From contig JAHBBC010000007.1 in assembly GCA_019915015.1 (NCBI GenBank), forward strand, positions 1,364,001-1,428,000: DNA of 64,000 bases, read 5' to 3'. Under the pieces are notes generated by a model, which saw only the letters and a program-made list of their open reading frames with translations, did no database searches and was not told the DNA's origin. This DNA comes from Auriscalpium vulgare (taxonomy: Eukaryota; Basidiomycota; Agaricomycetes; Russulales; Auriscalpiaceae). The stretch's first letter is position 1. Every line of letters starts with the position of its first letter. Positions 1 through 31,952 of this stretch are shown here, piece after piece. Made by a program: the position numbers and the translations under genes.

Positions 1-432
1 TTATATCGACGGGTTTTTTAGTCAAGAGAATTTTCAAGCAGAATTCGTGGTCATCCCAGTTCTTGAACGCCTTGTTGATGATCGGTCCGTATGCATGACC
101 TTTGTGGTGTTTGTTGAGGAGGAAACCGAGAGTAGCCTGCATGATAATCTAAGGATGGATTGTTTTAAATAAATGTAAGGATGCGGACTTACTCCTTCCT
201 TTCGAAGTTTCGGCCAGAAAGGTTTCCGATCCTTTTCCGTCGCTTGAGAGATAGCGTTGGCGGCGTACACGACGCGGGCTTCCAAAACAGCGACGTCGTT
301 GGTCGTTACCGGTTGTGCGTCGCGCTTTGGGATGGACGACATGAGATGATGATGGTTGAGGATAGAGATCGGATTGTCCCGTTTTGGAGAGACGCGTGAC
401 GTCATGTGGTTCACTGACATAACGGAAGTCAC
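1..432 (-). CDS. WW-microexon family, copy 1 (3' part beyond window)
   Basis: Function unknown; the family is defined in this window. Exon 1 runs 432 to 193 on the minus strand (80 codons, ends phase 0 at a GTAAGT donor). Exon 2 starts at 136 after a TGCAG acceptor and is still open at base 1, so the Trp-Trp signature and the later exons lie outside the window. Exon 1 contains a helical stretch (VLEARVVYAANAIS) that aligns with copy 8 (RLETRIVFAATAIS), which is why I assign it to the family. The start could be Met at 432 or Met at 417. It lies tail-to-head downstream of copy 2, with about 210 bp between the copy 2 stop and this start. No signal peptide is visible. Confidence 0.6.
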
Positions 433-642
433 GGTGGTGTTCCCGTCGAACCGTAGAGGGCTTTTCAGAATAGAATAACACCTTGATTAAGTTAAAGAAC
501 ACTTTTACGAATGGACGTTCAAACAGATCAACCGATGCCATTTTCGTGACAAGCGAACAACAAGTACAAATCAACGTAAGCCATGAAACGCGTGTGTAAG
601 GTAACTTAGAACCGCTCGCAGAAAGTCAGTGTTTATTCTATT

Positions 643-2569
643 TCACTGTAAAGCACCAGAGGTGGATTAGAAAAGTAATGTGAATATGAATATAAATTAC
701 TCGTACCTTGGAAGGTCCTGCTTCGTCTTGACGAACGCGGCGACGTTTCCTGGCTTCAACCGTCTCGACGAGAGGCTCCGGTTCCAGCTTTAACTTGAGT
801 GCTTCGACTTTCTGCTCGAGATCTTGGATTCGAGAGAGCAGTTGGCTGAACTGAAATTTTGACTGTCGGCGCAGGAATAACAAATTCTACGTAAACGTGA
901 GCTATCGTTTACATTCAGTATCAAAATTCGAATTTACGGAGAGCCGCAATTCGAGTTCACCCGTCCGCTTGAGGATAGGATTCGACGTCGGATTGAACGC
1001 CGTCTTGCCGATAATGAAGTCCCCTTGCATGTGACGCAGTTCATCGCCAATATTGTTACTGAGTATGTACTCATCCGACACTGGTAAAATATTTAGCAAT
1101 GAGTATGATGAACAAAACAAAACACTTACACGTGCGTGGGGCCATATGTACGGGTACGATGCGAACTATGGATACATATTAGCATGGGGATGGCATGATT
1201 CGCAAAGGACCGCACCTTTCCTTGGTCGGCCGCGACCAGTGGATTGCTTCGCTAACTCTGTGAAGTCGCATTAAATTACGAGTTCATTACTTTAATCGAA
1301 CATACTTGGAACGACGCGCTTGGCTGCTTTAAACATGGATTAAGTTCTGCGTCTATCAACAATGATAGTCAACTGACGTTGCTTGGCTTTTGCTGAAAGG
1401 TAAACATCATGAACATTATTTATGATGGATCGCATACATCGGATCGTACCTGCACGAGTATTCCTTTTTTTTGGTGCAGCGATGGATTCCGCAACTGCGA
1501 CATAATTAGTCGGCCGTTGTGATCTGGTAATACTTTAAAGACGGGTGAATAGATGAGAACACACCGACGCTCTCATCAGATTCTTCGTTGTCGTCTTCGA
1601 CATCGATATAGTTGACGTCGTCAAGCTCAGGGGATCCGTACACGGACGGACCTATAATAAAAGGGCCGGTATTAAAAACGTATCGACACTGGTATTAAAG
1701 AAAAAACAATACGCTTAACGGATTCTGCTGCAAGTCAAGCGTAAGGAATACTTTATGACGTGAAGAGAAAACATTAAATTTACCGCTTTTTTTCACGGAC
1801 TTCTGGACGGTGGGCTCTGCATGACAAGTCGCCTGCCGTTACACAAATACACCGAAATAAAAAATCACATACTGTATTCATCATCGGATTCCTTCCCATC
1901 AGTATGATCGCTGTCGTTGCCATCGCCGTCGTTACCCTGGAGGGCACCGCCCTCAGACGCATCTGTCATAAAAGCATGTCAGGAAAAGTCGGTACGTGAC
2001 GATATACAGTGTACAGGCCTTCGTCTTCATCAGAACGGTTCTCGATATAAAACTCGTCATTGTTACCTGAACCACGGACGTCTAATCTTTATGAGTACGA
2101 TACAATCAGTACTGAAGGAATACACTAACCAAGATTCATCCACCAGCAGTTGTCTCCAAAGTCTTCAACGGTTTCCGCAGGTTCGAGCTGTATCCGCTCG
2201 TACAGTTCGTCGATGACCTCGCGGCCCACGCACGTCTTGCGCTTTTTGTATATGTCGTTCGCCCAGATGCTCAGGTCCGTCTTGACACCACCGTCCTTTG
2301 CGCACTTTTTCGAATGACGACTATACGACCCCTGACATATAATATGAAAGCTGACAGTTAAATAAAAAGAAACAAAAGCGTACCAATTCTTGGTACACCA
2401 GCCCCATGACTTCGTTGGGCACGTCCGCAACATCCGAAACGTTGTAGAAACTCATTGCGATAGCCTCCAATCGTGCGTGCAAGCGTTCGAGTTCACGGTT
2501 GTCCTCTTCTCTCTCTTTGATTTTCGCATGGTCGACGGTCTTGCGCGCACCCTTGCCCAAGCCGGCCAT
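643..2569 (-). CDS. WW-microexon family, copy 2
   Basis: Multi-exon gene of unknown function. Exon 1 (2569 to about 2384) gives a Lys/Glu-rich helix with ELERLHARLEAIA, like copy 7 (VERLHARLYETV). Exon 2 (about 2332 to 2131) ends in DNCWWMNLG just before a GTTAGT donor. Short acidic exons follow between about 2100 and 1200; not all of their borders are settled. The conserved C-terminal block (about 1081-933) contains MQGDFIIGKTAF, nearly identical to copy 7. The coiled-coil exon (about 844-707) has heptad-like LLSRIQDLEQKVEALKLKL and a basic RKRRR tail. The last exon supplies only the stop. It is divergent from copy 3; the 408 bp between the two starts probably hold a shared promoter. Confidence 0.65.
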
Positions 2570-2977
2570 AAGCAGTAGAGTGTGAGGTATGCGATCGGGC
2601 GGGGGTATGGAGAAGGGAGAAGGACAATGAGAGAAACGGCGATGTCGCAGTAACGGAGGAAGTCGCGCGTGTCCTAATCCGGTTGTGTATCGACTTCACG
2701 TTATCTCATCGCGCAATTCACACGCGTCAGGTCATTTGAGACTTGTTTAAGATAGGAAGCGCTGCCTTAAATTGAACGCTGTTGCCTTCACAAGGATGGT
2801 ACATGACAAGAGGAATGTAAATCCGATAGTGAAAGACAGTGAGATTACTTGAAGGGTGAACAATATAGCGATAGATAATATTGACCGCAGCGGATGCATC
2901 ACATGTCACAGTTACTCCGTTGTCACGCAAGTCGCGGTGCGTGTTCGTCGTTCTTCTCCTCTCACTACCAACATAAC
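2570..2977. promoter_or_regulatory. Putative bidirectional promoter of copies 2 and 3
   Basis: A 408-bp gap between two divergent family members with no supported gene in it. It contains pyrimidine-rich stretches (for example TTCTTCTCCTCTCACTACC just before the copy 3 ATG), as is common at fungal starts. No operator-like site is recognised; the regulatory role is inferred from the head-to-head layout. Confidence 0.4.
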
Positions 2978-5180
2978 ATGGCGCTCACCTCCGAAAATCG
3001 TCCTCCCACTCTCGAGACAGACATGGCAAAGGTCAAGGACACATCGACGATTATCGTGCCGAAGTTCTCGTCCGATCTTCCATCAGACGAGAAGCAATTG
3101 AGGGGCTACCTGTACCGGCACGAAATCCGGTGCATGTCGTCTGGTCGTGCAGTGAAGGAACAGCCGGAGTCGTCGTATGGCACTTATGAAACGGCGATTA
3201 AGGCAGAGGTGGTGAGTGTTGCCTTGTTTTTGTACGCGTCCAGAATAATTTAATTTTGTAGGCGCAACTTGTCCGAGCGTTGGGCAAGTGGGATTCATTG
3301 GGCGAAGGCGTCGAGTACGAACGGTACGACTGGATCAACGAAACGCGTACCCTCTATCGTAAGGCAAAAACCACCGAGGGATTCAAAGCTCTCCTCCGAC
3401 ACCTAGCGTCTCAGCCGCTGCCCGAAAACGCGCAAGACGAGTTAGCTGACTCGACCGACTTTTGGTGGGCGACTATTAAAAAAGGTAGGTAGCGAATAAT
3501 CAATTAACTGATTTCTTAATAAATGATTATGCAAACAGAGACGAGCATGAAAGTGCAGGCGACTTTTGACACGGAAGACGAGGATCACGGTGAGTCCCGG
3601 ATGTGAGAATAATGATCAATCCTAATATTCGTATTAAGATAAAATGGACGTTGACGAAACGTCTGTTGGTGACAGTGCCGACAAAGGGGTTGGGCAGCAC
3701 AAAGCCCCTGCAGTGACAGACAAGGGAAAAGGGCGGGCAACGAAGGAAACGGAGGGTACGTCGAGTCGGACCAACATCGTATGTTTAATTCACGGCGTCG
3801 AAAAAACAGGTATAGTCGACAGAGAGGGCTCGCCTGCGAAGAAGAACAAGTCGCCAGATGGTAGGTCATATTAAATAACATTTGATTACTTAAATGACGT
3901 TCTCGCTTTAACAAAACTAGTAGTTGTCAAGGATAACGCGCCTGGAGCGGGCGTGAAGGAGAAAGCGCGTGCAGCGAAAGAGGGTCCAGAGCCAGAGAGT
4001 AAGTGACAGAGAACTAATGTGAATTTATTAAATTGACGTATTCGAAATAAAAACCTAGACCCCACGAAGAGCGTGCATGCGTCGAGGGGTAACTCACCGG
4101 AAGGTATGTCACATTTAAAGACCATCGTCTATGTAAATGACGTTGTCGCATAAACCAATTTAGTTGTCGTCAAGGAGAACGTGTCCGTAGCAAAGGCTAA
4201 GGACCCGGATGGTAGGTTACGTTAAATAAACAAGTCTACACCGCTAAATAAATAATTCTAGTCATTATGAAGTCGCCCAGGACAACCCGCACCATCAAGT
4301 CTAAGGCTATAGTCGAGGGTGCGAGTCACATCCTATAAATTCACTTAATCTAATGCTCGTACAGATAGTGACGATGACGTTGGTGAGTTTTCAACGAACG
4401 TCGAACCGGTTTCCTGTTAAAGTATCACGAGCAGTGGTCGAGGATAATTCCAGTGCGTTTCATATTTTTTCTGTAACACTATGTTTTCTTCATTAATAGG
4501 ATGACTTCAGGGTCAAGGGTGTTGGTTCCTGCCGGTAGACGGGGTCGGTTTGCCAAGGCCAAGGGTAAGTTTAACATCTTACGATTTATATAAATATTCA
4601 CCATGAGTTCAGGATTCCGTGGCGAAGAAAAATATTCCGGTAAGTCGCACATGTACACGCATATGAATTAGATGGTCAACCTGACGCTTAAATAATACAG
4701 ACAAACCAGCAGACCCAATCTACGGAGATACGCCCTTGCGTGAGTGTGTTTTATAAATAAGTTTGTGGGTATTAATAAAGGATTTAGTATCTGGAGACCA
4801 CGTTCTCGGAACATCCGTTCGCGAGGAAGTCGACTATATTCTCGCGACCTCAAAAGCAGTCGAAAACTTTGCGAAGTCAATCAAGACCGGATCAAAGCAC
4901 GTTTCGGAGGGATACATTCGCAGCCAGGTATAATTCTCAAATATTTAATGCAGACATAACGATTATTAACATGTTGTAGCATGTCTCGGTGCTGTGGGAA
5001 GACGAACGCAACGTCATGTTGCAAAGAATCGCCGAATTGGAGAGGGAAGTTGAAAGGCTTAAGGTTTCGTCCGGTAAAACATCCCCGAATGTCGCTGCAA
5101 AGTCGGGAAAGCGCAAGACCGTGAACGCTGCGGAACAACCGGTCGCAGGTTCGTCGAAACTGACTTCAGGCAGGCGTTAG
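2978..5180 (+). CDS. WW-microexon family, copy 3 (best preserved, about 16 exons)
   Basis: Reference copy. Exon 1 2978-3211 (78 codons, phase 0). Exon 2 3262-3484 (223 nt, phase 0 to 1) contains VRALGKWDSLGEG and ends in FWWATIKK. Twelve short exons follow, about 3539-3589, 3639-3755 and so on to about 4739. My counts are 51, 117, 51, 78, 45, 48, 57, 18, 30, 54, 27 and 39 nt, all divisible by three and all phase 1 to phase 1. They encode an acidic/Lys-Ser linker. Two of them look like exon duplicates (VVKDNAPG and VVVKENVS). The penultimate exon carries SGDHVLGTSVREEVDYIL; the last (4980-5180) is a coiled coil (MLQRIAELEREVERLKV) with a basic tail. No signal peptide or membrane segment is seen. 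Possibly a nuclear or scaffold protein, but that is only a guess from composition. Confidence 0.75.
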
Positions 5181-5357
5181 TCAGTGTTTTCGTTTTGAAT
5201 GGTTGATGTACACGGCACGTTCTGGTTGTTGAGGCGTAGACTCTTGTAACACGGTCAATGAATATGAAATTTGCGTCACGGTATGATGAAAAAGTCAGAA
5301 AGTCGAAAATATAAACCATGAAATGAGTTCGAATATACGACGATGATTAAACTAATA

Positions 5358-6297
5358 TTCATTTGTTTTAATTAAATCTGTGTATATATAATCAAGGATG
5401 CCGACCTACCCCAAGCAGTGCGAAGATTACCGGTATTGTTGTCGGGGAGAAGATGCCGACCGGTTGTCATTTCGTCGTAGTAATACCACTGGCTATTGAT
5501 ACGTATTCGAGAAGTGAAATGAGAGCCCCCATAATAAACTATTCCCAGAATACTATATGATCGTCGAACATCGGAAATGTTTACGGTCTAATCTTCATTT
5601 GGTTTAATTAAATCTGTGTATATATAATCAAGGATGCCGACCTACCCCAAGCAGTGCGAAGATTACTGGTATTGTTGTCGGGGAGAAGATGCCGACCGGT
5701 TGTCATTCCGTCGTAGCAATACCACTGGCTATTGATACGTATTCGAGAAGTGAAATGAGAGCCCCCATAATAAACTATTCCCAGAATACTATATGATCGT
5801 CGAACATCGGAAATGTTTACGGTCTAATCTTCATTTGTTTTAATTAAATCTGTGTATATATAATCAAGGATGCCGACCTACCCCAAGCAGTGCGAAGATT
5901 ACTGGTATTGTTGTCGGGGAGAAGATGCCGACCGGTTGTCATTCCGTCGTAGTAATACCACTGGCTATTGATACGTATTCGAGAAGTGAAATGAGAGCCC
6001 CCATAATAAACTATTCCCAGAATACTATATGATCGTCGAACATCGGAAATGTTTACGGTCTAATCTTCATTTGTTTTAATTAAATCTGTGTATATATAAT
6101 CAAGGATGCCGACCTACCCCAAGCAGTGCGAAGATTACTGGTATTGCTGTCGGGGAGAAGATGCCGACCGGTTGTCATTCCGTCGTAGTAATACCACTGG
6201 CTATTGATACGTATTCGAGAAGTGAAATGAGAGCCCCCATAATAAACTATTCCCAGAATACTATATGATCGTCGAACATCGGAAATGTTTACGGTCA
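5358..6297. repeat. Four tandem 236-bp repeats at the 3' end of the Helitron ORF
   Basis: The motif ATTAAATCTGTGTATATATA starts at 5371, 5607, 5843 and 6079, an exact 236-bp period in each case. The four units differ by only a few substitutions. The rightmost unit is coding: it contains the last 70 or so codons and stop of the Helitron protein. The three units to the left are non-coding copies of that end (236 is not a multiple of three). This looks like recent tandem duplication of the terminal segment, for instance by slippage or by imprecise Helitron termination. Confidence 0.9.
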
Positions 6298-9200
6298 ATT
6301 CTTGACTAACGTCGGCCGCCGAGCCTAATAGGGATACCAATAACACTTTCCCAGCGTTATCTCGAGCATGCAAGCGATTTTGTGTTTCGTGACCACATAT
6401 CCGACACAAGCGTCCCCGGCCCGAAGTTTGATCAATCATGTAGCTCGCTGTCGAATCACAATCCATTGCATGCCATAGAGGTGTGGCCATCTCATTATCT
6501 ACAGTGAGTTCATTACATATCACGCAATATTCTTGCCGGCGAACAGGGCCAGTATTTAATATCGTCGTTGAAAGTTGGTACAGGTCTGTACCGTCTTCAC
6601 GACTTACATCAGGATAGACGTCGGTTACCTTTCTGCGTAAATAGTCTCTAGCGGCTTCCGGTGTTAAGCTGTTATTGCTCCACAGGGTGTGCATATATAA
6701 TGTATACGCATTAAGATTCTTCATAGTAGACATCCAATAACCATTATTGAGTTTGAAGATAGAGTACAAAGTAGTCAATAAACTGTCGTAGGCACAACTG
6801 AGGCTGACGGCATCCCAAATTAAACCGAATTCAACACTATCATCGTGTTGTACATTGACTTCCGTGCGCGAACGCTTTGCAGGAGGCTCGTGCATGATAA
6901 ATATAGATTTACTTCCTTGAGCAGGATTTAACTTGGAGGCAGAGGTAGAGAGTTTTGAATTATTCTTTTTCCGACCATCAATGATTTCCCATGCAACAGG
7001 GGGGATTACAGTGACTTTCTTAAACGGTTTAGATTTGGACCAAGCAATGGAGGAATGAATTCCCGTCGGAACAAATGTCTCCCCTTGGAGATCCTGATAT
7101 TGCCTGATAAGAGCCGAACGGTAGGTCGCGTTTAGTGTAGGACTTAACTCGCCCTCGTATTGCATTTCAGTGATATGATTTAAAATCTCTAACTCACGAA
7201 GTTCTTGTCTAAGCCATCCTGATATACCTGCCTGTATTTTTTGTGCATGAAATCCTCTCAGAATCAGAGTATCCGACAAAGAAGAAGATCGCGATAGACA
7301 AGTGTAGATTGATTGGTGGTTTCTACAATGTTGTAAATCCACGACATTGACTGGTCGCGTTCGGCCTTGAGCTTGAAAGTCCGTCATAGAAAAATTAGGA
7401 ATTATGGGAACCTGTTCGCGAGATATTTGCATGTCGCGATCACTGCGTGTAGCACAACGGACGGATGTGACTTGTTTCGATAAAGGAATAGTATTTAAAG
7501 GTAAGTTAGGGATTTTTATTGGCGTTGGTGGATGCGTCAATTTCAAGAAAACTACCTCGAGAGCTTGATGATTTTTATCCAATGGATAAGACTTCCATCC
7601 GGTAACGGTTGCTTCGGCTCCATTAGTGACGGAGAGTTCAGTCGCTTCGTTCTTTTTGATCATGACTGGTAAACCTATACATAATGACAGTTTTCCTGGA
7701 ATGTGATCCGTAGATGCAGGTCGCAGTTGCCATAATTCGTTCTGATGCTCTTTCACAATATTATCCGATGATCGCAACGGATCTACTAAAGTACGTTTAC
7801 CACGCTTACCAGTGGCTTTCTTTTCTTTAGTCGTCCACTTATCCTTTGAATAAAAGTCTTGTAGTTCTTGATTAGTTTCTCGAGCAAAGCGTTTAACCCC
7901 CACGGCGTTAATGGCATCTCGCTGGACATTAAACGCGGTTATAACCGATATATTGCGAAACTTTGGGTCGGAATGTTTAGGTTGATGAGCAGCAGGACCC
8001 GCAACTCGAGTCATCAGTAAGGCAACATCCTCGTCGGTACATGCAGCATACCGCATATTCTCTAGTGCTGTTCTGAAAGCGAGATCCTCGTCAGACTGTA
8101 TATTTTGTCTCATATTCTGCTTCAAAATAACCACCACCGTGAACTGATGCCAGAGTGCTTTTCCTAAAACACATTGTTGGGTAATATGGCTGTTAGTCGT
8201 ATGTATAATACTTTGTGCTTGAGGTGCATACAACGAAGGATGTCTTCCTGGTGGTGGGAGCTGCGCAAAATCTCCGGCAAAAACCATGTTGATACCACCG
8301 AAGGGGTCGCCGGGCATACGCATGGCATTGCTCATTTGGGCCGAAATGGTATAAAGATTATGACAGTCGACCATGGAAATTTCGTCCAAGAAGATATATT
8401 TCACGTGTTTGATGCGATCATATATTTCACCCATTGTCGTGATATTTTGCTGGGTGGTAAAGCCATTGATGCCGAGAACTGAATGATAAGTTGAGCCAGA
8501 TATAAGGGCAGCAGCAGCACCAGTTGGTGCTAGAGTTAGAAATTTATGTGATTCATTTCTTTGGGCAAACCATTCCATCAAGGCTTTTATAACCTGTGAC
8601 TTTCCTGTGCCAGCCATTCCACCCAGATAAAATTTTAATTGACTAGCTTCTGGATCCAGAGAATGTTTAGTGATTATACGGAAGGCACGTCTCTGATCGG
8701 AATATAACGTAAAGTCTCTTTCGATTTTATCCATCAACCGTCTTTCTTTCTTGGTCCCTATAATATATCTTTTATCCAGGTACTTTTTATCAACCATTTG
8801 AACGACGTTAGTATTGTAGTGTGGATATTCCCCGCGTCTCAAGTCTTTATTTAAATGAGCAGTTTCTTTCTGACGGTTATCAAGGACCTTTTGTTTTTCT
8901 TTATTTAATATGCCCTTCCACTCGTTGGGAGCGTGCGCGCCGCCGGATTCAAAGGGTACATTGAAGGATGCACTTGTTTGAGCTGTTGCCCAACCATTAT
9001 TCTGTAGTAAACTTTCCATTTGCTGATATTGTATCAGCTTGCGCTCTTCCCTCTTGCCAATTTCTTCCCAGTAGCTCTTAATGACTTCTTTAAAACCGAC
9101 CTCATCGATTTCGGCGGCGCCTATCGGCTCGTCTTCATCGCCACTGTCATTGAATGCAAATTTATTATTTTCGTTGTTCATGTTATGTTTACCTTCTCTT

Positions 9201-13210: not shown

Positions 13211-13493
13211 GGTTGAGTGAAAGCCTGATACGCCAACCTGCAGATGTTTTATAACCAGTTGCCGTGGGAAAAATTACATAATGCGATATGGGATGTTCCG
13301 GCAGGGATCTTTTCCAGTAGGCGATACGGTATTCAACAGTCATTCTCAGGCTAGCCTGTAGTCTGTATGGGTAGATTCGGTTCTTTGTTATGGGCCTCGT
13401 TATATAATAACATGTAAAACAATCCATACCCACAGGGAGTAGTAAGGGACTAATAGATACGGTTGTCATTATATATCTGTAATCCAAGCATAT

Positions 13494-19014: not shown

Positions 19015-19531
19015 GTTAAGCCGCCGAGGTACTGAGTTCGCCTTTTCGTTGGTTCAACATGTAAACATTACTTTTAAACGTGTACTCGTAATATTTTCAG
19101 CAATACCTTCCTTTAAACTTGACGTATGTTATATGGGAAGGGTACCCAAGAATATCTCCTATGTATAAGACAAATGACCACTTACGGTCTTAACGAATAT
19201 AAAACTCGCTACGCATGTACGCCGTCACAATAATTCAATCATGTCAACATTAATACCCAATCAAATCGTGACACAGAATAAGGCGTTGTACAAAGATCAC
19301 GTAAGAGGACACCCGTCACATGACCCTAGCACGCCACCGTTACCAACGACGTACGTTAGCCGTCGGAGGACTTCGTCACTACCTTCATCCTCACCTCCAT
19401 CTCGTCTCACCAGAAGTAACCAAAAGAACCATGGAATATAAAAAGCTCGATGCAATATCAATCACGCAAGTGCCGGCCACATACTACCGCCGATCTTCCC
19501 TTCCACCCTGCCAGAGGATGCAGACAAATTA
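19015..19531. other. Upstream region of copy 4
   Basis: About 500 bp. The frame immediately before Met 19532 continues upstream as PPIFPSTLPEDADKL, which matches copy 3 (VPKFSSDLPSDEKQL), so exon 1 of copy 4 originally extended further left. That frame meets a TAA five codons above the conserved stretch. An alternative frame from Met 19241 is Ser/Pro/Arg-rich and unconvincing. Confidence 0.4.
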
Positions 19532-20749: not shown

Positions 20750-21153
20750 ACCGTCATGAACTAAAATGATATCGAACGATTGCTAGACGTTCCCAGACGT
20801 TCAAAATCCCGGTATTGATTGTATTGTTTAATACGTTGACTTGATCAACTGCTTTAAATATAACAGAAGATACGTTTCACCACAGTGAACATAATCTGGA
20901 GTAAGAACGCATAAACTGTACATCCCCCGCGCTAAAGTCACTGTCATCAATTCTGTTCGCTACGTATGAATACAGGAACACATAGCATCACGTTGCCTTA
21001 CCGTCGTCACGGGGCCGTGAGTATTCGTCCGGGCACTAACGTCCTGACACCAAACTCAGCCAAACAGAGCCTCTTACCTCACAACCATCTCCACCTTGGC
21101 TTTCTCTACGCGTCTTCTTCACGACTCATCCAACCGTCTTCCTCTTACATTCG
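20750..21153. promoter_or_regulatory. Intergenic, promoter of copy 5
   Basis: No supported gene. The 3' half has a CT-rich run with CACCAACTC-type phrases and a TTTCTCTACGCG stretch, similar in character to the starts of copies 6 and 7. Confidence 0.3.
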
Positions 21154-22562: not shown

Positions 22563-22779
22563 CCACAGCTCGTCTACATAACATTTATATCTGACATATG
22601 GTATTTAAAAACATGAACTTTGTTTTGCATTTCTTCGTATCGTCGGCGCTTCGGCGCTGTAAAATCAACATGACTTGTCACGCTAGTTGATTACGTTTAG
22701 AATACCATAGTTTCGCTGACGGAGAACAGTGTGAAGTGCGAATGGCAACCACCGTTAGAAATAATACGCCTTTGCAAAA

Positions 22780-22971
22780 TTTGGTCACGGGACAACCCAA
22801 ACAACCCAAACAACCCGACCCGTTCCGTATAGGTGTACTCACGCCTTAACCTCTTACCACCAACTCCACAGTAGCTGAAGACGACCCGTATATTTCGTAC
22901 ATCGATTCAATCACTCTACTCCATCAGTCGCAAACAACACCCACCATTCGCTTCTTCATTCGTCCTTTTTA
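22780..22971 (+). promoter_or_regulatory. Duplicated promoter segment, unit A
   Basis: Upstream of copy 6. It shares an ordered series of phrases with the region upstream of copy 7: CACGGGACAA, a short AACCCAAACAACCC-type repeat, CTTACCACCAACT, GTAGCTGAAG, TATATTTCG and TTCACTCTACT-like runs. TATATTTCG may act as the TATA element. Likely a promoter copied together with part of a gene. Confidence 0.6.
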
Positions 22972-23795
22972 ATGATGGCTTCAAAACAATTCGACGACGT
23001 CAAAGGGACGCCCATTGAGTACGAGGAACTGGTCAAACAGCAACAGAAGAGGAGTGAGTTGCTATAGAACTTATAAATATATGTTGACTAATGTAATACA
23101 CAGAAAAAGAAATAATGGCAGAGATGAGCGACGGTAAACTTATTTATTTGCTCGTTGATAACATATTAATATTCTATTATCAGCCACCACCGGAAGCATT
23201 AAAAGTAACAAACGATGATATGAAACAGGCATATGAATTAATCGGTGATATAGGGCCGAGATTTGAGCAAACGCATTGCAATAAAACAAAGAATACTATA
23301 CCTGACAAAGGAAAAAAACGAGTTCAGGCAGGGAAAGGTACGCATCACGATTGCAAATGATATAACATATAACCCATAGTATGCCAATCCTCACAGGTCA
23401 AGTCACACCGATTAGCATGGCACTGCGAACCAGTAAACTGAATTAATATGTAACGCGAACACGTCTACTAATATGCGGATCATAGTGAAAGGAGAAATTA
23501 TTTTCTCGAATGACCTCCAAGATAAAGTTTCCTTCATGCAGGGGGACATTATCATTGGCAAGATGGCTTTCGACTGGAGGGCGAATGAACTCGGCAAATA
23601 TACAAAAGAACTGATCGTACGTTTAGAGGTATGTCTAATTCAAATGACCGATAATATTATAATATGCATTCGGCACAGAACATCCTAGTTATGCATAAAT
23701 ATCGGCGTGCACTGTACGAGGAGACTCTGAACCGTATCTCTGTACTGGAAGAACGTATTGCAACGTTGAGGGCCAAATTGGAACCCGTCAACTAA
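22972..23795 (+). CDS. WW-microexon family, copy 6, lacking the WW exons
   Basis: Begins ATGATG at 22972/22975. Its first exon (KQFDDVKGTPIEYEELVK) corresponds to an internal exon of copy 7 (KQFYDIKGVPSEFEELVK), not to a family exon 1. Next come a 30-nt exon, then a 144-nt exon (about 23185-23335), a short exon, then the conserved block (about 23480-23628: NDLQDKVSFMQGDIIIGKMAF) and the coiled-coil exon ending at 23795 (RRALYEETLNRISVLEERI). Exons 1-4 of the canonical layout are absent and the promoter sits directly before the internal exon. It is either a functional short isoform gene or a 5'-truncated duplicate. Confidence 0.6.
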
Positions 23796-24124
23796 ATAAA
23801 GGTAAAATAGCCAACAAATAATGTCACAATTATTGATCACTATATTTGTTAGAATAGGGAATAACCAATTCATGATTGAAGGTGTGAATGGCAACGAGGG
23901 TTTGTTGAATGAATAGCTCACAAGTTTATGGGTCAGGCAATACTGCAAAATCAATGTTCAATTGGTTGAATTTGCTACTCTCGATACGTTGTTACTTCGT
24001 ATTCTCCGTCTACTTGATTGGTACAAATAGAAGATATCAATGTACACGCAATCACAATCTGCAAGGCATTACATTGACAGCAATTGGTTCCTGTCATATG
24101 TCGTCTGAAACATTAGCCCGATGT
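23796..24124. other. Intergenic between copies 6 and 7
   Basis: About 330 bp, AT-rich, with no supported gene. A 103-codon frame opens here (from 23909) but has no family similarity or splice context. Confidence 0.4.
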
Positions 24125-24316
24125 GAGACCTGGTCACGGGACAAACCAAACAACGTCCCGACCGATGCGTATAGGGGTACTCGTGGCTTAACCCCTTACC
24201 ACCAACTGCCGAGTAGCTGAAGCTACCCCTATATTTCGCACATCAATTCTTTCACTCTACTTCATCAATCGACGAACCAGACCTATCACTCGGTACACTA
24301 TTTCCCACACGGCACA
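24125..24316 (+). promoter_or_regulatory. Duplicated promoter segment, unit B
   Basis: Matches unit A at 22780-22971 in phrase order: TGGTCACGGGACAA, CCAAACAACG, CCCCTTACCACCAACT, GTAGCTGAAGC, TATATTTCGCACATC and CACTCTACTTCATCAATC. The conserved run ends shortly before the ATG of copy 7, so transcription probably starts within it. Confidence 0.6.
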
Positions 24317-25989
24317 ATGAAGGGTTACCCAACGAAGAACATTGAAACGATAAAAGAACAGTACGCAATACATCAGCGACAGGAAGTTGAACGGTTGCAT
24401 GCCCGTTTGTACGAGACAGTAAAGATGCTTCAAAAGGATAAGAGCGCTGCATCGAATAAGTATGTCTTGAAGATGATCTTCAGGGAAATGGTACGAGTTA
24501 TTTTATTGTATCTTCACATCTACATTTTATTTCAGAGAGAATTTTATCGCGAGTACTTCAACTTCATTCAAGCAGGCGGAGTAAAGATGCCGATTGGACC
24601 ATGGTGCCGCAACGCGTACAAATTACGAAATACATGCGACGGCAAGAAAGTTATCAACGAATTATGCCAATTCTTTTCGGATCCCGTTCAAATTGACATC
24701 AAGGATTTGGGTGCGAACCAATGGTGGTTAAACATAGGTAAGCTTCAATCTACGTTTCATGGACAGCATGCAATTATTCAGCTATGCATGAAGCCGAGGA
24801 GGTTGTCGACGACGGCGTCGATGACGATGAAGATACCGACTATGCAGAAGGTGAGTTAGAATAAGACGGTATTACTTTAAGTTTGAATAATCTATCACTC
24901 ACATTGGATCAATTTATCATTATAGACTCGGACACCAGCAGCAACGAAGATGTTAATGAAAATAACAAAGGAGATGAAGCAAAAGGTATAAGCTTCAACA
25001 CCGAACGCGCATCACGTGTTCTGAATGTTTAACAGACACGAATAATTTGTCCCCTTTAATGACGGCCGTGAAACAATTCTACGACATCAAAGGGGTGCCC
25101 TCTGAGTTCGAGGAACTAGTCAAACGCGCGCAGAAGCGAAGTGAGTTGGTGTATAATTTATTAATACATGGTAAATGACACGATACACAGAAACGGAGAG
25201 GGAAGAAATAAACAACGGTGAACATATTTATATGCTCACCGGAAATATATTAACGAGGAATGTGATAGCGCCTACAGAGATTATTAAACGTAACACGCGA
25301 TTATACAAATCGTGCATGATAATTTATTCGTGATACAGGGCCGGAAAATCAACAAAATGATCGCAAAAAAACAAAGACAATTGTTCCCGACAAAAGGATA
25401 CAGCGGCCTCATGCAAGAAAAGGTACGCTTCCCGATTATAAATAACTTTATGTGTAACCCACAGTACGCTATTCATCACAGTTCAAGTCACACCGGTTAA
25501 CATGGCACCACGAACCCGTAAACTCATTTAATTCGTAAGGCAAATGCATCTAATAATGCGATATGTAGTGAAGGGAGACATGATTTTGACGAATGACCTC
25601 AAAGATGAAATTTATTTCATGCAGGGGGACTTTATCATCGGCAAGACGGCCTTCGACTGGAGGGCAAACGGACTCAACAAGTATATAAAAGAACTCAATG
25701 CACGTTTAAAGGTATGTGTATTTCAAATAATACATCGTGTTATATTATGCACTCGGCATAGAACCTCTTAGCACTGCTCAACCGTCGACGTGCATTGTAC
25801 GAGGCGTCATTGCACCGTATCTCTCTCCTTGAAGAACATATTGCGACGTTGCGGTCCCAATTGGATCCCAACACTTTCATTGAACCAAAGGACTTTTTCA
25901 ATAAACGACGTCGCATGGATCCACACAAGCAGCCCTCTGATCGGACAGAGAATGGCACCGCAATTGCCAGCGACAAGGGAAAGCCCTAA
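24317..25989 (+). CDS. WW-microexon family, copy 7 (possible frameshift)
   Basis: Exon 1 24317-24490 (58 codons) includes VERLHARLYETVKML. Exon 2 24536-24737 (202 nt) ends KDLGANQWWLNIG. Phase-1 symmetric exons of 69, 60, 105 and 27 nt follow. The 69-nt exon is strongly acidic (DDGVDDDEDTDY). The next segment (about 25270-25425) aligns with the 144-nt exon of copy 6 but does not keep frame: it contains an in-frame TGA near 25335. It is rescued only by a further splice whose left part (43 nt) is not a multiple of three. The conserved block (about 25570-25711, NDLKDEIYFMQGDFIIGKTAF) and coiled-coil exon (RRALYEASLHRISLLEEHI) are intact. It may be a recently damaged gene, or the exon may be skipped. 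Confidence 0.6.
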
Positions 25990-26309
25990 ATAAAGGTAAA
26001 ATAGTCAGCGATTAATATGCACATTCATTGACAAATACTTTTGTTGAATACAGGAATAAACAATTCGTCAATGCAACGGATACTCCTATGAATAAATAAA
26101 AACGCGTAGCCAAACAATTAGCCTATGACAGGAACTCGTTCTATAATATATCCCGTTTCTCCGCGATTTGATCACACGGGGTGTACTATACTCATCACAC
26201 TTCTAACTCGCAAACACGTGACTGGGCCTCAACGCCCCTATGATGACATGGAGCGGATAAGCGAACGTGCTGACATCTCTTTCATTCTGACCGTCACGAG
26301 CAATCCACC
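25990..26309. promoter_or_regulatory. Intergenic, promoter of copy 8
   Basis: About 320 bp with no supported gene. GTGACTGGGCCTCAACGCCC and CATCTCTTTCATTCTGACC-like runs before the ATG loosely resemble the duplicated promoters. Confidence 0.3.
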
Positions 26310-27817
26310 ATGTCAAGCAATATCCCTGATTTCAATCGCAACTCAGAATCCTGCGAGGTGGGAATATTCTCGTATCTAATGTTTGCCTATATCTGTAACC
26401 AACGAACCATAGACAAGTATAGGTTTCGACATTCAAAGATTAGAAACACGAATTGTGTTTGCCGCGACCGCCATATCAACCTTACCAGCAGATAAAGTAA
26501 CTAAAGATATGTGGGATAAACTTTTACATGAAACGGTAACTGTCATAAACAATACGTCGCAAATGCCAATCATGTTCACCTCTATCACAGCGCCAATTTG
26601 GTCGAACATTGTTGAGAGCAGAAACATATAATATTCAGAAAACCGAATACCAAGAAGCTATCATAGAGGGCTACATAAAGAGAAAAGACAAAGTCACGCT
26701 GCTAAAAAAACTAACATCCAAACGAAGGAGTGACGTCACCTTCAGTGGGAATCTAGGAGAAGACATATGGTGGGATAACATCGGTAAATACATTTATTTT
26801 GACGAATATTCTTAGAGATTAAAGATTGAATGAATGACATTAAAAGCAGCCAAGCAGCTTGTAACACCGAAGACGAATGACGAAGAAAACAAGAGGAGAA
26901 CGTCAAATGATTCGACAGACAAATTTATTGCTCATACTCAAGGTGCGAAGACAAAGAACATAAGTCATACATACTCACGTATTTCCAACAGACGTACAAT
27001 ACCAATCGTCAAATGAACCAAGTGAGTACATAATAAATGACGACAGAACAAATATCGACAAGATGTGTAACAGATGAATCAAGCAATAAACCCGATGGAG
27101 ATCAGACTTGTGCTACAAGCAGTGGACGTATATTGAACGGTACGCTACCGCATGATAACGACGAGCAATATTAAAATCTGAGATCGCCAGCAGACATTTC
27201 AGACATACCTACTGAAATATGTAAGTTGACACAATACTGATAAATAATCACATTATTAACAATTGGCAGATCAAATAAAAAACAATCTCACTGACATCGC
27301 AATCGCGGATTTAACGCAAATGGAACAAACGATTGAATTCGTCGAAAAAACGAACACGCCGTCGTTCTTCAAAGTGGTAAAAGCAGTACAGACCTTGAAA
27401 AATACCGTGGAGGTTAGACATGCCATCTACTGCATTTAAAGTACTCAACAACCACACCTTGTTTAAACATAGCATCTATGCATGACATGCGAGCGAGATG
27501 AGGACGCATTGAATACACGAATGAATAACATAAAGAAGCTAGAAGCATTGAGCACGACATTATCAAACAAACTTCAAGTTATGAAGACGAATGTTAAACC
27601 TGCTAAACATAAAATCGATCAAGATAATATATCCAACGCAAGTAAAAAACAAAGTGAGCATCTACATATACAATCCATGCACCTACTAATAAATAGAATA
27701 CAGAGATTCAAAAGTGATCCAATTTCTTCACCAGGATGGTCATGTATTAGATTGTTCGTCAATACATCGCCCCACCCTTCACACATGTTATCCCAAACCT
27801 TGCACTACGGCAAATAG
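26310..27817 (+). CDS. WW-microexon family, copy 8 (diverged)
   Basis: A short leader exon (from Met 26310) is followed by an exon with DIQRLETRIVFAATAIS, aligned with copy 1. Exon 2 26591-26783 (193 nt, phase 0 to 1) ends GNLGEDIWWDNIG. The region to about 27,250 is AT-rich, with short Lys/Asn/Glu-rich exons whose borders I could not fix. C-terminal exons at about 27271-27414 (LTQMEQTIEFVEKTN) and from about 27493 (MNNIKKLEALSTTLSNKLQV) give the coiled coil. The frame runs on to 27817 with unusual composition after about 27,660, so the original stop may be lost. Confidence 0.5.
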
Positions 27818-28394
27818 GGAAGGCCAACGTTATTAAATCGTAACCTTAATAGTTTACAACATCTGAATATAAATTAAATCATAAAGTCCACACGGACGAC
27901 CAATCCAAACAGTTTCGAACATCGGAATATAAATTAAATCATAAGGTTCATACGGACGACCAATCCACATGCATTCTATTAATGCATGTTCATGTGAACT
28001 AAAAAAGAATCACTCAGTGCTACAGCACTGCAGACAGCGTAACACTATAAGTAAAAAATTGAGTAACTTTTATCAAATGAAGTATCGGTGAATAATAAAT
28101 TTGCCAGGAACGACTAAACCAAATACATTATAATAGTCCGAATAGAATACGAAGAATTATTCTGTTCATCAGACTCAATTTCGATCATGGTACATGACCA
28201 CTATAATGTGGTATTGTGTTTAAATTATTTATCAATTCAACGCTGTACAGTGTACACAGAAACCACGTATGAGATCAAGTACAACCTGCGCTAATAAAGA
28301 ATGCGTTAGAAATCACAATTCCTATGCTTTTTCAGAGAGTGTTGCATCTTCAACCAATCTATTCGGAGACCCTATTGCACCAAGGACGGTAATG
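27818..28394. repeat. AT-rich intergenic with a short direct repeat
   Basis: A stretch of about 60 bp containing ATATAAATTAAATCATAA is repeated in tandem at about 27866 and 27926 (each followed by ACGGACGACCAATCCA). The rest is AT-rich and holds no supported gene. Confidence 0.6.
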
Positions 28395-29241
28395 TCAGAA
28401 TACGAGTAGGACTGTCTTAATAACTCGAACCTTGTAAACTTCAGTCAGGTAATTGAACTCTTCGTTGAGCGCATCACTCGCAGATATCAGTTTCTGGAAT
28501 TGTTTAAGTGAAAAAAAACGCGCTATTGTATTGATTATACGTACCAGAGACCGACGATCATTCCGCCATACTTCATCCTCGACAGACTTCATGTTTGACT
28601 TCAGTTCGTTCAGCAATTGGTGACAATCCGCGAGCCTCCTTTCAACATCATCTAAGCAAGAACACATTACATGTGAATAGTGAACGTGCAAGTCCTGAAA
28701 TATAAAATATACCTATTTGCATTGTAGGCGGAGGAACAACATTAGACGACGAAGCAAGAGGTAACGTGATTTTGACACGTTGTCGCCTTCCCTCCTGGTC
28801 GGTAAATACACGATGTATTTTGAGAGGCACTGAGAAATGTTAAACAAAGCAACCACATAGAAACATTAAGAAACACCTTGTTCCCACCACCGATCTTCAC
28901 CCAAGTCTACTTCTTTATATCGAGGAGGAGCATCGGAAAGAAAATCGGATACGGTCAAGGAAATATTGTCGCCGTCCCGCGCGCGATAGGCATCCGCGAT
29001 AATACGAAAAACTTTGTCCATGTACGGAGGTATACTATGATCATCTTCCCGCGTTGCCAGTCTTGCATTAAACTAAAGCATGTACTATTAGTAGCGAAAT
29101 AGCAAAACCGAAAACAAACTTTACCGCTTCTGTCAATAATCGACGCAACCCATCACACTGCTCGTCCCGGCCCATACGTGATAAGGACAACGCAGCGACG
29201 TAAAGTCGACATTGAAGTTGATTCAGGTCAACTGATGACAT
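28395..29241 (-). CDS. WW-microexon family, copy 9 (compact, minus strand)
   Basis: Five exons. Exon 1 from Met 29241 (or Met 29307) ends LLTEA at a GTAAAG donor. Exon 2 (about 29077-28880) contains DKVFRIIADAYRARDGD and ends VDLGEDRWWEQG. A linker exon (about 28829-28712) is Lys/Arg/Pro-rich. Two C-terminal exons follow: DDVERRLADCHQLLNELKSN and KLISASDALNEEFNYLTE. It has only one linker exon, against twelve in copy 3. It is divergent from copy 10 with about 150 bp between the starts. Confidence 0.6.
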
Positions 29242-29393
29242 GTTGCGGAGAAGAAGTCGAGGTTTGATAGCCCCTATCACGCTCCGACTTCTCAAAGAAC
29301 GTGACATGGATTTGTAAGCGATCGTACGATCTGCGCCTTGTTGGCCCCTTTAGAGCCTTGCCCGGGAAATGTGACTTGATCCTCGCCACCATC

Positions 29394-30423
29394 ATGCCCG
29401 TACCAGCTCATATTATCGCAAGGGAAACACGCATTGCATGTGTTATAAAGGCATTCAGGTCTCAAAAGAACAAATTGAAAACATCGGATATCAAACGAGT
29501 CGTTGCAGAAATAGTATAGTTTTCGTCATTAAAAACCAAGGAGAAAAACTAACACCAAAAATAGTTAGACGCATACAATGATATTCCAGATTATACAAAT
29601 CAAAGCGAATTTATTCTCCCTCCATACATTGCCAAAAGCATCCGATATATATCAACAATTGCTCTAGCAGGAAAAAGCGTGTTTGAGCAGTTCGATATCA
29701 CAAGACTGGCAGATATTCCCATTGAAGTCGATATACGATGCTCAAGTTATAAGGGAGAAAATATGTGGTGGAATGAGAAACGTAAGTAAACAATATGTTC
29801 TACAACAATATTCATACCGATATACGGTCAATGTAGATAATGAAGTAATCTTAATCGAAGATACGGAAGAAGCGATATACAGTAAGCATTTATGTTTCAT
29901 CTTCAATTTTATCGCATTAATTCTACCACTCAGTATCCAGCGGCGGTACAGAAGCTACTCCTTAAATCAAAATATTCATATGAGGGACTTATGAGCGTAC
30001 AGATGAATCTGCAATAAGACCTATGCAATGTACATCAAAAAGTAAGCGTTGAATAAATATCAACAAATTCAAAAGAAACCTAATAAACAAATAGATGGAT
30101 CTGTAAAAGAACTTAAAACAAAAGCGCTGGAAGGTAAGTAAACGATCGATTTATTAAACATGACAGAATGAATGTTTATGCAGATAATCAAATAAAGAAT
30201 GATGACTCAGAAATGCAAGCAAACCACATACAATATGACGCGGACAAAACTGAGACCAAAGGTAGATCCATAAATAAGAACAAACCAAGGCAATAAACTA
30301 AACTTAACATGGTTAGATCGCAACTTCAGTGAAGACATTGTACTGGAAATGGGGGAACTTCATCAAGACCTTCTTCACACATTGAAATACTTACAACATC
30401 TTAAACAATTAATTTCCAACTAA
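29394..30423 (+). CDS. WW-microexon family, copy 10 (short C-terminus)
   Basis: Exon 1 (Met 29394, or 29301 in the same frame) to 29513 includes ARETRIACVIKAFRSQ. Exon 2 29565-29781 (217 nt, phase 0 to 1) ends GENMWWNEKR. Several Lys/Asn/Glu-rich short exons follow between about 29,830 and 30,270 with uncertain borders. The last recognisable exon (about 30319-30423) reads RNFSEDIVLEMGELHQDLL and stops; the separate coiled-coil exon found in other copies is not evident. The codon bias is AT-rich, like copy 8. Confidence 0.5.
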
Positions 30424-31103
30424 TAATGACGAATAGTAACAAAAGGACATTATACACAATAAGACATTGACATGTAGTAACTAGGTTGTTTTCTTTACAG
30501 CGCCGGTATGCCGTTTCCAGTATTCCGGGTCTTCCATACGTTTCACTAAACAGACAAAGATATCATGAATAACAGTATCCGTTTTAGAAAATGAAACACC
30601 CACGAAGAACTTTTAAACATGAATTAACAATTTAGTTGATACGAAAGAATCACGTACATACCATCAACATCAGTGTCGCGATCTACCCCATAACATAAGA
30701 AAAACGAAATAATTGATATGAGACGTACAAATTCTTACCATGCATCTCACCAGGATCCAAATTATTCCAGTCCGCCGCTTCCAACAAAGACAAATCAACA
30801 GCTACACGAATCAAAACCATTAAGGCACCAGATATATAGTGAATTGAACAGGGCCACGATACCTTCATTCTTTCCTTTGGACTTTAAACTAACGATAACA
30901 GCATCTTGCTAAAATGATAAGTTTCCAACACTACGGACGCTTGAGATCCGTACCGCGAGGTTCAGGCATCATGGTAAAGATTGAACACGCGACAGTATCA
31001 CCAACCGAAACAGGGGTATTGAGCAAGCATGTACAAACAACGTCGGCATCTGAAACACCAACTCAGGGGGTCAACGGTCGCTTTCCCCGCTTGGCTACGT
31101 AAC
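30424..31103. other. AT-rich intergenic
   Basis: About 680 bp. Short frames occur on both strands (for example 30718-30912 and 30914-31102), but none shows family similarity or splice support. The right end serves as the promoter of copy 11. Confidence 0.4.
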
Positions 31104-31952
31104 ATGTTGTCGACGTACAAAGAATCTATGAAATCCGAAACAAAGACAGAAAAACTGAAAAAAGACATCAATACACGTCAAAAACAACTGAAACAGCTAA
31201 TAAGAAAGTATCAACATGACCCTTCGCAAATAAACAACGATTCAATTCGAGACCTAATGTCTTTAATAGTACGTTCCTCACTTTTATAAATAAGCATCGC
31301 GTTAAAATAAACGACAGGCAATTGTTGGCAAAAAAAACGCTCTATTGGTTCAGCTCACGGGAATACCGACAGAACCAGAACTAGGCGCCATCATAATGTT
31401 ATTCCACAACCATCAATATCTCTCACCACACGCCATATCACGAAAAATAAGTGAATTAAATATGTCGAATGATGCAAAACCAAAGACGGTAAGACCATGA
31501 GATGAAACATTGAATATCTTGTACTAAGACGATTTCAGGATATACATTCAGAAGAGATTGCAACCATCGAATACACGGATGGCAGTAGGGAGGCACCAAT
31601 CAACAGTAGTGAAGGTGTGTGATGAAACACAATAAATAACGACGTGGTTACGATTCAACGCCAGAAGTGAAAGTCAACCTGTCGATGCTGAAGAAAGACG
31701 CGGAATTTATACACAAAAGAATGAACGAAGAAATAGACAAAAGAATAACTTTGACGATTAATATGATTACAAGGATAGAGGTACGTAATAAATCTTTCAG
31801 TTTACATCATATAAAATCTGGTACAGGTCATCAAGAAATTATACGCACAAAAAGTCATCGCATGCAAGGAAAAATCCCTTGAAATAACGAAATTGGAGGA
31901 ACACATCCGCCGGCTGCAAGAACAAGTCGATAGTTACGACGAACTAGTATAA
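31104..31952 (+). CDS. WW-microexon family, copy 11 (WW motif lost)
   Basis: Exon 1 (Met 31104 to 31268) is a Lys-rich helix (KKDINTRQKQLKQLIRKY) ending at a GTACGT donor. The second exon (about 31319-31489) occupies the exon 2 position (IPTEPELGAIIMLFHNHQY) but ends in KPKT without the Trp-Trp motif. A 76-nt acidic exon follows. The conserved-block exon (about 31667-31780) is weakly similar. The last exon (about 31827-31952) is a clear coiled coil (ITKLEEHIRRLQEQVDSY). Either exon 2 has been truncated by a shifted donor or the motif has decayed. Confidence 0.45.

What the first reader, a model, noticed from the sequence alone, without database searches (positions are those of the whole stretch)
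1..31952. An eleven-copy, apparently undescribed gene family with a fixed exon grammar
Eleven copies share one layout. Exon 1 is helical and ends phase 0. Exon 2 goes phase 0 to 1 and usually ends in Leu-Gly-x-x-x-Trp-Trp. A variable set of tiny exons follows, then a conserved MQGDFIIGKTAF-like block and a coiled coil. Copies differ greatly in sequence but keep lengths and phases (exon 2: 223, 199, 202, 202, 193 and 217 nt). Such rapid divergence with preserved structure resembles families under diversifying selection (recognition, allorecognition or effector-type roles), but no function is shown.
Basis: partly seen in the sequence, partly recalled or inferred. Interest (0 to 1): 0.9.

Follow-up and report, generated by a model that had tools for sequence, protein, structure and literature searches.

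The report
Giant Helitron carrying private gene family
The eleven look-alike genes are not a free-standing fungal gene cluster but the private, still-maintained gene family of an unusually large (about 37.5 kb) rolling-circle jumping gene that has spread to several places in this genome, which makes the unknown job of these proteins part of the question of how giant jumping genes succeed.

Summary
The family is real. In seven loci 41 of 41 small internal exons are phase 1-1 (shuffles 10 of 85); with the other four loci, 46 of 51. Nine of eleven copies carry Trp-Trp in exon 2. No Pfam family passes its cut-off for four members scanned.

The context was missed. The cluster lies inside a 37,746-bp mobile element (window -1695 to 36050) with sharp ends, terminal hairpins, no target duplication, an open 2,397-aa Rep-helicase and short derivatives sharing both ends: a giant Helitron2-type transposon, nine copies or parts, five end to end.

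RepHel and a neighbouring OB-candidate gene form a conserved core: 24 of 25 relatives of that gene lie divergently within 30 kb of another RepHel. The family itself was not recognised in 15.4 kb beside one relative's core; a diverged relative lies on contig C18.

Diversifying selection is not supported: 44 nonsynonymous to 34 synonymous differences between copies, omega 0.36-0.52, no family exonic indels. Best guess: nuclear coiled-coil accessory proteins serving the Helitron, perhaps against silencing. Function untested; no transcripts.

The parts
1..36050 (-). Part of the giant Helitron that lies in the window (whole element is C7:1362305 to window 36050, 37,746 bp; RepHel sense is the - strand, so its 3' end lies left of the window and its 5' end is at 36050)
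   Evidence: same block at other genome places with sharp shared ends
36004..36050 (-). 5' end of the element (Rep sense TTCTGATTCCATATTTGGAATCAG...), terminal hairpin
   Evidence: identical in five giant copies and nearly so in 20 short derivatives; hairpin z -5.1; inverted repeat GATTCCAT shared with the other end at offsets 4 and 36
6080..13273 (-). RepHel open frame, 2,397 aa (first Met that I looked for at residue 103)
   Evidence: Pfam DUF6570, Helitron_like_N, PIF1 over cut-off; HUH, YVTEYITK, Walker A/B motifs; the same 2,397-aa frame in C19, C9a and C13, shorter or broken in C9b and C58a
14257..17616 (-). RS-rich many-exon gene (model, 25 exons; 16 of 20 small exons phase 2-2)
   Evidence: weak relatives between RepHel and OB-candidate gene in other RepHel loci
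17828..19014 (+). OB-candidate gene (possibly RPA-like by position; no Pfam or PDB support), core gene of this Helitron group
   Evidence: 24 of 25 relatives sit divergently within 30 kb of a RepHel relative; no Pfam hit
1..342 (-). family copy c0, exons 1 and 2 begin here and the gene continues left of the window (last exons around -518 to -825)
   Evidence: ends LGEDLWWEKI
707..2569 (-). family copy c1 (13 coding exons; exon 2 2331-2130; block exon 1080-938, MQGDFIIGKTAF; stop codon placement uncertain)
2978..5180 (+). family copy c2 (14 exons; exon 2 3262-3484)
19532..20749 (+). family copy c3 (9 exons; exon 2 19718-19916)
21154..22562 (+). family copy c4 (8 exons; exon 2 21399-21600)
22975..23795 (+). 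family copy c5, lacks exons 1-2; 79% identical to c6 over a 300-nt stretch of its last exons
24317..25989 (+). family copy c6 (10 exons; exon 2 24536-24737)
26310..27717 (+). family copy c7 (exon 2-type exon 26591-26783, 193 nt; start of gene uncertain, two models)
28322..29307 (-). family copy c8 (exon 2 29072-28877; end of gene uncertain)
29394..30385 (+). family copy c9 (exon 2 29565-29781; end of gene uncertain)
31029..31952 (+). family copy c10, no Trp-Trp exon; last two exons match the family profile
5352..6303 (.). four tandem 236-bp repeats at the end of the RepHel gene
32380..35298 (.). non-coding repeat end: 465-bp direct repeats and 68-bp tandem arrays, CpG-depleted (observed/expected about 0.4 from 32805 on); the part from about 34190 on is kept in the three short derivatives read

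Best explanation
The eleven genes are the private accessory gene family of a giant Helitron2-type rolling-circle transposon of about 37.5 kb. Shown: the block recurs as a unit with fixed ends, RepHel and the OB-candidate gene are a conserved core, and the family exons are kept open by purifying selection while the element spreads. Inferred: the products are nuclear proteins with an N-terminal helical domain (exons 1-2), a disordered charged linker (small phase-1 exons), a short helical block, a coiled coil and, in six of the ten last-exon sequences examined, a basic cluster that could be a nuclear localisation signal. They oligomerise and act on the element's own DNA or chromatin to help it propagate; the most attractive specific job is to counter silencing, or control replication, through the repeat-rich non-coding end (the way VANC proteins do for VANDAL transposons in Arabidopsis). 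The uniform exon phase fits growth of each linker by tandem duplication of exon-plus-intron units. My step-wise odds: family belongs to the Helitron 0.93; it serves the Helitron rather than the host 0.75; nuclear coiled-coil proteins 0.65; anti-silencing specifically 0.3.
For: Repeated block at C9 (twice), C19, C58 (twice), C13, C33, C2; sharp ends with unrelated flanks; RepHel motifs, open over 2,397 aa in four copies; terminal hairpins and asymmetric inverted repeat; pre-insertion site without duplication; short derivatives with both ends; OB-candidate and RS gene beside other RepHels; family 44 nonsynonymous: 34 synonymous, omega 0.36 (P 1.2e-5) with equal rates and 0.52 (P 0.0036) with transitions weighted sixfold, and 0 indels in 9,139 exonic bases, like RepHel 11:11; phase test 41 of 41 in seven loci, 46 of 51 in eleven; basic clusters after the coil in c0, c1, c4, c6, c7 and the C18 relative; CpG observed/expected 0.94-1.42 in 22 of 25 bins, 0.85 in one, and 0.43/0.39 in the two bins of the repeat end.
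Against: No transcripts or proteins. Gene models are mine. No family member was recognised in 15.4 kb beside the core of one relative Helitron on C23, so the family does not look like part of the conserved core. c0 shows no constraint (13:3), and new stop codons occur in some copies (C2 c0 and c1; C9b c4). A basic cluster was not found in c2, c3, c5, c10 with the pattern used. CpG depletion of the repeat end may simply mirror repeat composition. The anti-silencing link is an analogy.
Confidence: 0.6

Rival explanations
1. Structural or replication subunits: the family proteins are parts of the rolling-circle transposition machinery itself (for example single-strand or hairpin binding), duplicated to build a hetero-oligomer.
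For: Purifying selection of a strength like RepHel's; coiled-coil ends; located with RepHel and a conserved second core gene.
Against: The family was not recognised in the part read of a relative whose locus has the same core; 24 other RepHel loci keep the core pair and the family queries did not find them.
Confidence: 0.25
2. Passenger genes: a host gene was captured once by the Helitron and multiplied by local duplication; it has no role for the element.
For: Helitrons capture genes; a diverged relative with the same 39/140-nt exon pattern lies in GC-rich DNA on C18, where one search lists no RepHel relative.
Against: Family exons are under purifying selection between element copies and hold no indels; passengers should decay. 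Few possible host relatives in the genome.
Confidence: 0.12
3. Selfish-drive, incompatibility or allorecognition cargo: a recognition-type family under diversifying selection riding on a giant element (like spore-killer genes on large elements in Podospora, recalled).
For: Many diverged paralogues with kept structure; symmetric phase-1 exons would allow combinatorial splicing; c0 shows 13:3.
Against: omega 0.36-0.52 between copies and 0.44 between c5 and c6; no known toxin or recognition domain; likely nuclear (inference).
Confidence: 0.1
4. The gene models are over-split open frames in AT-rich repeat DNA.
For: No RNA data; several copies have unclear ends; small exons of c0, c8 and c10 do not share the phase (1 of 6).
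Against: 41 of 41 small exons in seven loci share one phase against 10 of 85 in shuffles; third codon positions vary most, no exonic indels; the C18 relative keeps the last three exon borders.
Confidence: 0.03

Closest known systems
Helitron2 / FoHeli non-canonical Helitrons (Fusarium oxysporum, PMC5148889, passages seen)
   Same: RepHel, asymmetric terminal inverted repeat some tens of bases from the 3' end, hairpins at both termini, no target duplication
   Different: FoHeli elements are given as about 5-11 kb; different terminal letters; their TNAT/T target preference is not seen here
Pleurotus ostreatus HELPO1 Helitrons with cap genes (PMC4289320, abstract and parts of the results seen)
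   Same: basidiomycete Helitrons carrying genes of unknown origin found only on Helitrons
   Different: 1.5-13.7 kb, one to four cap genes, no multi-copy family reported in the sections read; I could not compare cap sequences
Maize Helitrons up to 39 kb (as reviewed in PMC6431247, passages seen)
   Same: similar length
   Different: those carry up to nine captured gene fragments; here many-exon genes of one family under purifying selection
VANDAL/VANC anti-silencing transposons of Arabidopsis (abstracts of PMC5735166, PMC10398659 seen)
   Same: transposon-encoded, diverging proteins; tandem repeats in non-coding element DNA as targets (analogy only)
   Different: different transposon class, no sequence relation found; binding and demethylation untested here
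Plant Helitrons with an RPA-like gene (abstract of PMC4683698 seen)
   Same: a second conserved gene beside RepHel, possibly single-strand binding
   Different: the OB-candidate gene here has no Pfam or PDB match, so RPA kinship is only a guess
Micro-exon genes of schistosomes (recalled)
   Same: runs of tiny symmetric exons
   Different: no sequence relation known; not tested

Membership tests
Helitron superfamily | Rep (HUH and two Tyr) plus PIF1-type helicase in one protein | tested here: met
   Pfam hits over cut-off; HMH, YVTEYITK, GMAGTGKS, LDEISMV (motif meaning recalled)
Helitron superfamily | no target-site duplication, precise insertion | tested here: met
   four pre-insertion sites leave one ambiguous A/T, by combining the C7 right and C58b left flanks; of 20 short elements 6 show 1-3 nt matches of the flanks, 14 none
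Helitron superfamily | non-autonomous copies sharing both termini | tested here: met
   20 short elements with both ends compared; 3 of 20 read in full
Helitron1 (canonical) | 3' end CTRR and insertion between A and T | tested here: not met
   3' end ...CAACATGT; flank bases G in 13 of 26 left and C in 18 of 24 right flanks
Helitron2 | asymmetric terminal inverted repeat and hairpin at both termini | tested here: met
   GATTCCAT at offsets 4 and 36; hairpins z -5.1 (0 of 200 shuffles) and -2.1 (12 of 200); the repeat is short and the second hairpin weak
Helitron2 | RepHel groups with Helitron2 proteins in a tree | not tested
   no reference Helitron proteins were at hand
VANC-type anti-silencing proteins | homology to VANC / its Pfam domain | tested here: not met
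   no such Pfam match for the four family proteins scanned
VANC-type anti-silencing proteins | binding to own repeats and loss of DNA methylation | not testable with these tools
   needs ChIP and bisulfite data
Family under diversifying selection | excess of nonsynonymous change | tested here: not met
   44:34, omega 0.36-0.52; c5-c6 0.44; c0 alone 13:3

The most novel reading that the evidence does not exclude
A giant Helitron maintains an in-house family of about ten diverged nuclear coiled-coil proteins, built from uniform-phase micro-exons, as a silencing-escape or replication-control system matched to its own repeat-rich end: a fungal, rolling-circle counterpart of VANC/VANDAL.
Probability: 0.25. 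Interest if true: 0.87.

Novelty: new variant of a known kind. Interest (0 to 1): 0.72.

Why it matters
A review gives fungal Helitrons as typically 6-7, up to 14 kb, and whole-gene cargo as exceptionally rare (PMC6431247, passages seen). A Helitron of about 37.5 kb, present in several near-identical copies, with a conserved core and a private family of selected, many-exon genes widens what rolling-circle transposons can carry and keep, and offers a ready set of unknown proteins to test for transposon self-defence. The uniform-phase micro-exon layout is a clear, testable case of linker growth by exon duplication.

Tried and rejected
Pfam for four family proteins (c1 cut short, c2, c4, c6): best E 0.032, all far under cut-off; NCBIfam for two: none over cut-off; PDB by a profile of eight: designed helical proteins (best E 0.0012) and a weak match to YkuI, dismissed as coil and composition. 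OB-candidate gene: no Pfam hit, PDB E 0.29 or worse. Exon-2 model by AlphaFold2 from eight rows: four helices, three of them long, mean pLDDT 72.7, pTM 0.36; Foldseek gave one match, E 5.2, so no fold claim. Viral contigs for a RepHel piece: no relative confirmed. Family in a relative Helitron (C23; 9.4 and 6.0 kb beside its core, element ends unknown, so part may be host DNA): a Trp-Trp stretch that looks alike but has no profile support; the best profile match had E 0.019 among 470 ORFs and lies elsewhere, so nothing is claimed. The weak match on C41 (E 0.33) gave no family gene. The whole-family alignment has only 14-31% identity to c1 and is weak in the linkers. Selection was first judged with equal mutation rates and rechecked with transition weights: weaker, same direction. 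In one search I kept one row per locus (secondary pieces of a locus and this element's own copies dropped); several of the RepHel loci are near-identical copies, so the 24 pairs are not 24 independent cases, and the seven RS-gene matches stand for about three element families. Papers searched for an earlier description; 'giant Helitron' gave 0 papers. Repbase and most subscription papers are not searchable here, so absence in print is not shown.
Full report
What was checked. The window is C7:1364001-1428000 of a 51.6-Mb genome in 96 contigs. Its host is a fungus by inference: short introns, a Helitron RepHel, a SEC9 match beside the element (E 3.6e-5); probably an agaricomycete, not shown. I wrote a small splice-model programme without any phase preference and ran it on each copy. 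It gives eleven copies, here c0 to c10, c0 running out of the window to the left.

More than chance. In seven loci (c1-c4, c6, c7, c9) the programme called 41 small internal exons and all 41 are phase 1-1. The same loci antisense give 0 of 3, dinucleotide shuffles 10 of 85 and host DNA, with base frequencies adjusted, 7 of 81. The other four loci give c5 4 of 4, c8 0 of 1, c10 0 of 1 and c0 1 of 4: 46 of 51 in all. Leave-one-out profiles find the held-out exon 2 in 8 of 9 cases at E 0.0088 or better (c9 0.32) and the last two exons in 9 of 9 at 0.0031 or better, for a set size of 8,802 ORFs; the alignments had been made with all rows, which helps the held-out row. Limits: c5 lacks exons 1-2, c10 has no Trp-Trp exon, the ends of c1, c8 and c9 are uncertain, and Leu-Gly is present in 5 of the 9 Trp-Trp exons.

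What it sits in. Searching the genome with c6 returned c6 itself (94-98% identity over its first exons) on C9 twice, C19, C58 and C33, and other members of the cluster on C13, a second C58 place and C2 (likewise c2). Comparing fetched copies gives one unit from C7:1362305 to window 36050, 37,746 bp, with sharp ends and unrelated flanks. Five copies have both ends (C7, C19, C9a, C9b, C58a; the last read only in part, its middle known from search hits); C58b, C13, C33 and C2 are partial: nine in all. Differences from C7: C19 32 bases over 37,746 compared, C9a 44 over 35,812, C9b 134 over 29,234, C58a 38 over 7,488, C58b 2 over 4,575, C13 24 over 3,747, C2 92 over 4,521. C9a and C9b hold later insertions.

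Which kind of element. The 7.2-kb open frame at 6080-13273 on the minus strand carries DUF6570, Helitron_like_N and PIF1 with the HUH, two-tyrosine and Walker motifs. It is open over 2,397 aa in C7, C19, C9a and C13, shorter in C9b and broken in C58a. In Rep sense the element begins TTCTGATTCC and ends CAACATGT, with a strong hairpin at the 5' end, a weaker one about 14 nt from the 3' end (z -5.1 and -2.1; 0 and 12 of 200 shuffles fold as well) and the inverted octamer GATTCCAT at offsets 4 and 36. These are Helitron2-type features as described for Fusarium Helitrons (PMC5148889, passages seen); the canonical 3' CTRR and A/T target are not met. Short elements of 2.7-8.3 kb share both ends: 20 were compared at both ends, out of 43 right-end and 52 left-end matches listed, which include the giant copies and partial matches. 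The three read in full match the giant element over 61 bp of the left end and over the right end with the 68-bp repeats.

Insertion. The right flank of the C7 copy is a repeat found at eleven other places at 98-100%. In the four of these that I read, the sequence continues leftwards into what is, over the 30 nt compared, the left flank of the C58b copy. Together they give an insertion with no duplication beyond one ambiguous A/T. It also means that the left and right flanks of the window's copy come from different sites, so the C7 contig is either mis-joined inside the element or recombined there.

A conserved core. The gene at 17828-19014 (OB-candidate, a name from its position and my recall; no Pfam or PDB support) has 25 relatives outside this family of elements, and 24 of 25 lie within 30 kb of one of 43 RepHel relatives, all 24 in divergent orientation (chance about 5% per gene); 24 of the 43 RepHels have such a partner and 19 do not. 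Several of these loci are near-identical copies, so they are fewer independent cases. Seven weak matches (E 0.008 to 0.31) of the RS-rich gene at 14257-17616 all fall between RepHel and OB-candidate gene in the RepHel orientation, in about three element families. So a group of multi-gene Helitrons seems to live in this genome. The eleven-gene family does not look like part of that core: 15.4 kb beside the core of one relative on C23 (both sides, core itself not read, ends unknown) gave no profile support, and c2, c6 and c8 used as queries hit this element's copies, plus C18 (E 9.5e-5) and negligible matches on C41 and C1.

Origin. On C18 a diverged relative keeps the 39-nt phase-1 exon ending in APRT, a 140-nt phase 1-to-0 exon and the coiled-coil exon (profile E 6.8e-9 and 3.2e-4), with traces of a second unit (E 0.003). 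Its exons 1-2 were not recognised by the exon-2 profile. No RepHel match is listed on C18. Whether this is the captured ancestor or an old escapee cannot be told.

Selection. Across the fetched copies, each compared with C7, the family exons show 44 nonsynonymous and 34 synonymous differences; 78% nonsynonymous would be expected with equal rates (omega 0.36, P 1.2e-5) and 71% with transitions weighted sixfold (omega 0.52, P 0.0036). Without C2 25:18 (P 0.002); RepHel 11:11 (P 0.003 to 0.03); the RS gene 6:4 and the OB-candidate gene 0:1 are too few to judge; c0 alone 13:3, no constraint. No indel falls in 9,139 family exonic bases, against 5 events in introns and 27 outside genes; the 3 exonic events lie in other genes. 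Variants per 100 sites in the family are 0.56, 0.76 and 1.25 at codon positions 1, 2, 3, introns 0.91, intergenic 0.98. Three new stop codons exist (C2 c0, C2 c1, C9b c4). c5 against c6 gives dN/dS 0.44. Thus the genes have on the whole been kept working while the element spread; diversifying selection was not seen. Differences are few and the shared ancestry of copies was not modelled.

How it may work. Exons 1-2 look helical; exon 2 alone predicts as helices at mean pLDDT 72.7 and pTM 0.36, not good enough for a fold claim. The linker made by the small exons is 72% charged, polar, Gly or Pro residues in c1 and c6; a basic cluster follows the coil in c0, c1, c4, c6, c7 and C18, not in c2, c3, c5, c10 by the pattern used (reading it as a nuclear signal is inference). 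Uniform phase, and local self-similarity inside c2 (one 48-nt pair) and the RS gene (four pairs), fit growth by duplication of exon-intron units. CpG observed/expected is 0.94-1.42 in 22 of 25 bins, 0.85 in the next and 0.43 and 0.39 in the last two, where tandem repeats lie. This resembles, by analogy only, VANDAL transposons, whose VANC proteins bind non-coding tandem repeats and undo silencing (abstracts of PMC5735166 and PMC10398659). My commitment: nuclear, oligomeric accessory proteins that serve the Helitron (0.75), anti-silencing in particular 0.3.

Known or new. A review gives fungal Helitrons as typically 6-7, up to 14 kb, and maize up to 39 kb with gene fragments (PMC6431247, passages); Pleurotus Helitrons carry one to four cap genes (PMC4289320, abstract and parts of the results). 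Other fungal Helitrons carry TET/JBP dioxygenase genes (PMC12730594, passages), a precedent for transposon genes thought to counter silencing. I found no description of a Helitron with a private multi-gene family in the searches made, but the library lacks most subscription papers and Repbase, and the protein database was switched off, so novelty is provisional.

Noticed in passing
C7:1362304 / window 36050-36051 and C58:76430: The right flank of the window's element copy and the left flank of the C58b copy are the two halves of one insertion site, so contig C7 (or C58) is probably mis-joined or recombined within the 37-kb repeat.
   Followed up: partly
window 14257-17616 (-): RS-rich gene whose small exons are mostly phase 2-2 (16 of 20), a second case of near-uniform-phase micro-exons in the same element.
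   Followed up: partly
window 32805-36050: Sharp drop of CpG observed/expected (about 0.4) confined to the non-coding repeat end of the element.
   Followed up: partly
genome G000 (C1, C4, C9, C10, C22, C23, C24, C47 and others): 24 RepHel loci outside this element family have a divergently placed OB-candidate gene 8-30 kb away: a group of multi-gene Helitrons.
   Followed up: partly
C18:825-827k (L020 4025-5828): Diverged, possibly degenerate relative of the family, GC-rich, with no RepHel match listed on that contig.
   Followed up: partly
window 36567-46449: Gypsy-type retrotransposon frames (by eye) between 230-bp direct repeats that are 100% identical, so probably a recent insertion.
   Followed up: no
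window 6080-7222 (-): C-terminal part of RepHel reads like a cysteine peptidase (SCAYD ... GGSHF), from memory; Pfam finds nothing.
   Followed up: partly
L069 (C6:258742-267251): An 8.3-kb short derivative with both Helitron ends; the origin of much of its inside was not examined.
   Followed up: no
L080 (C23:495300-501300): A long spliced frame beside the relative Helitron reads, by eye, like a transposase of another kind.
   Followed up: no
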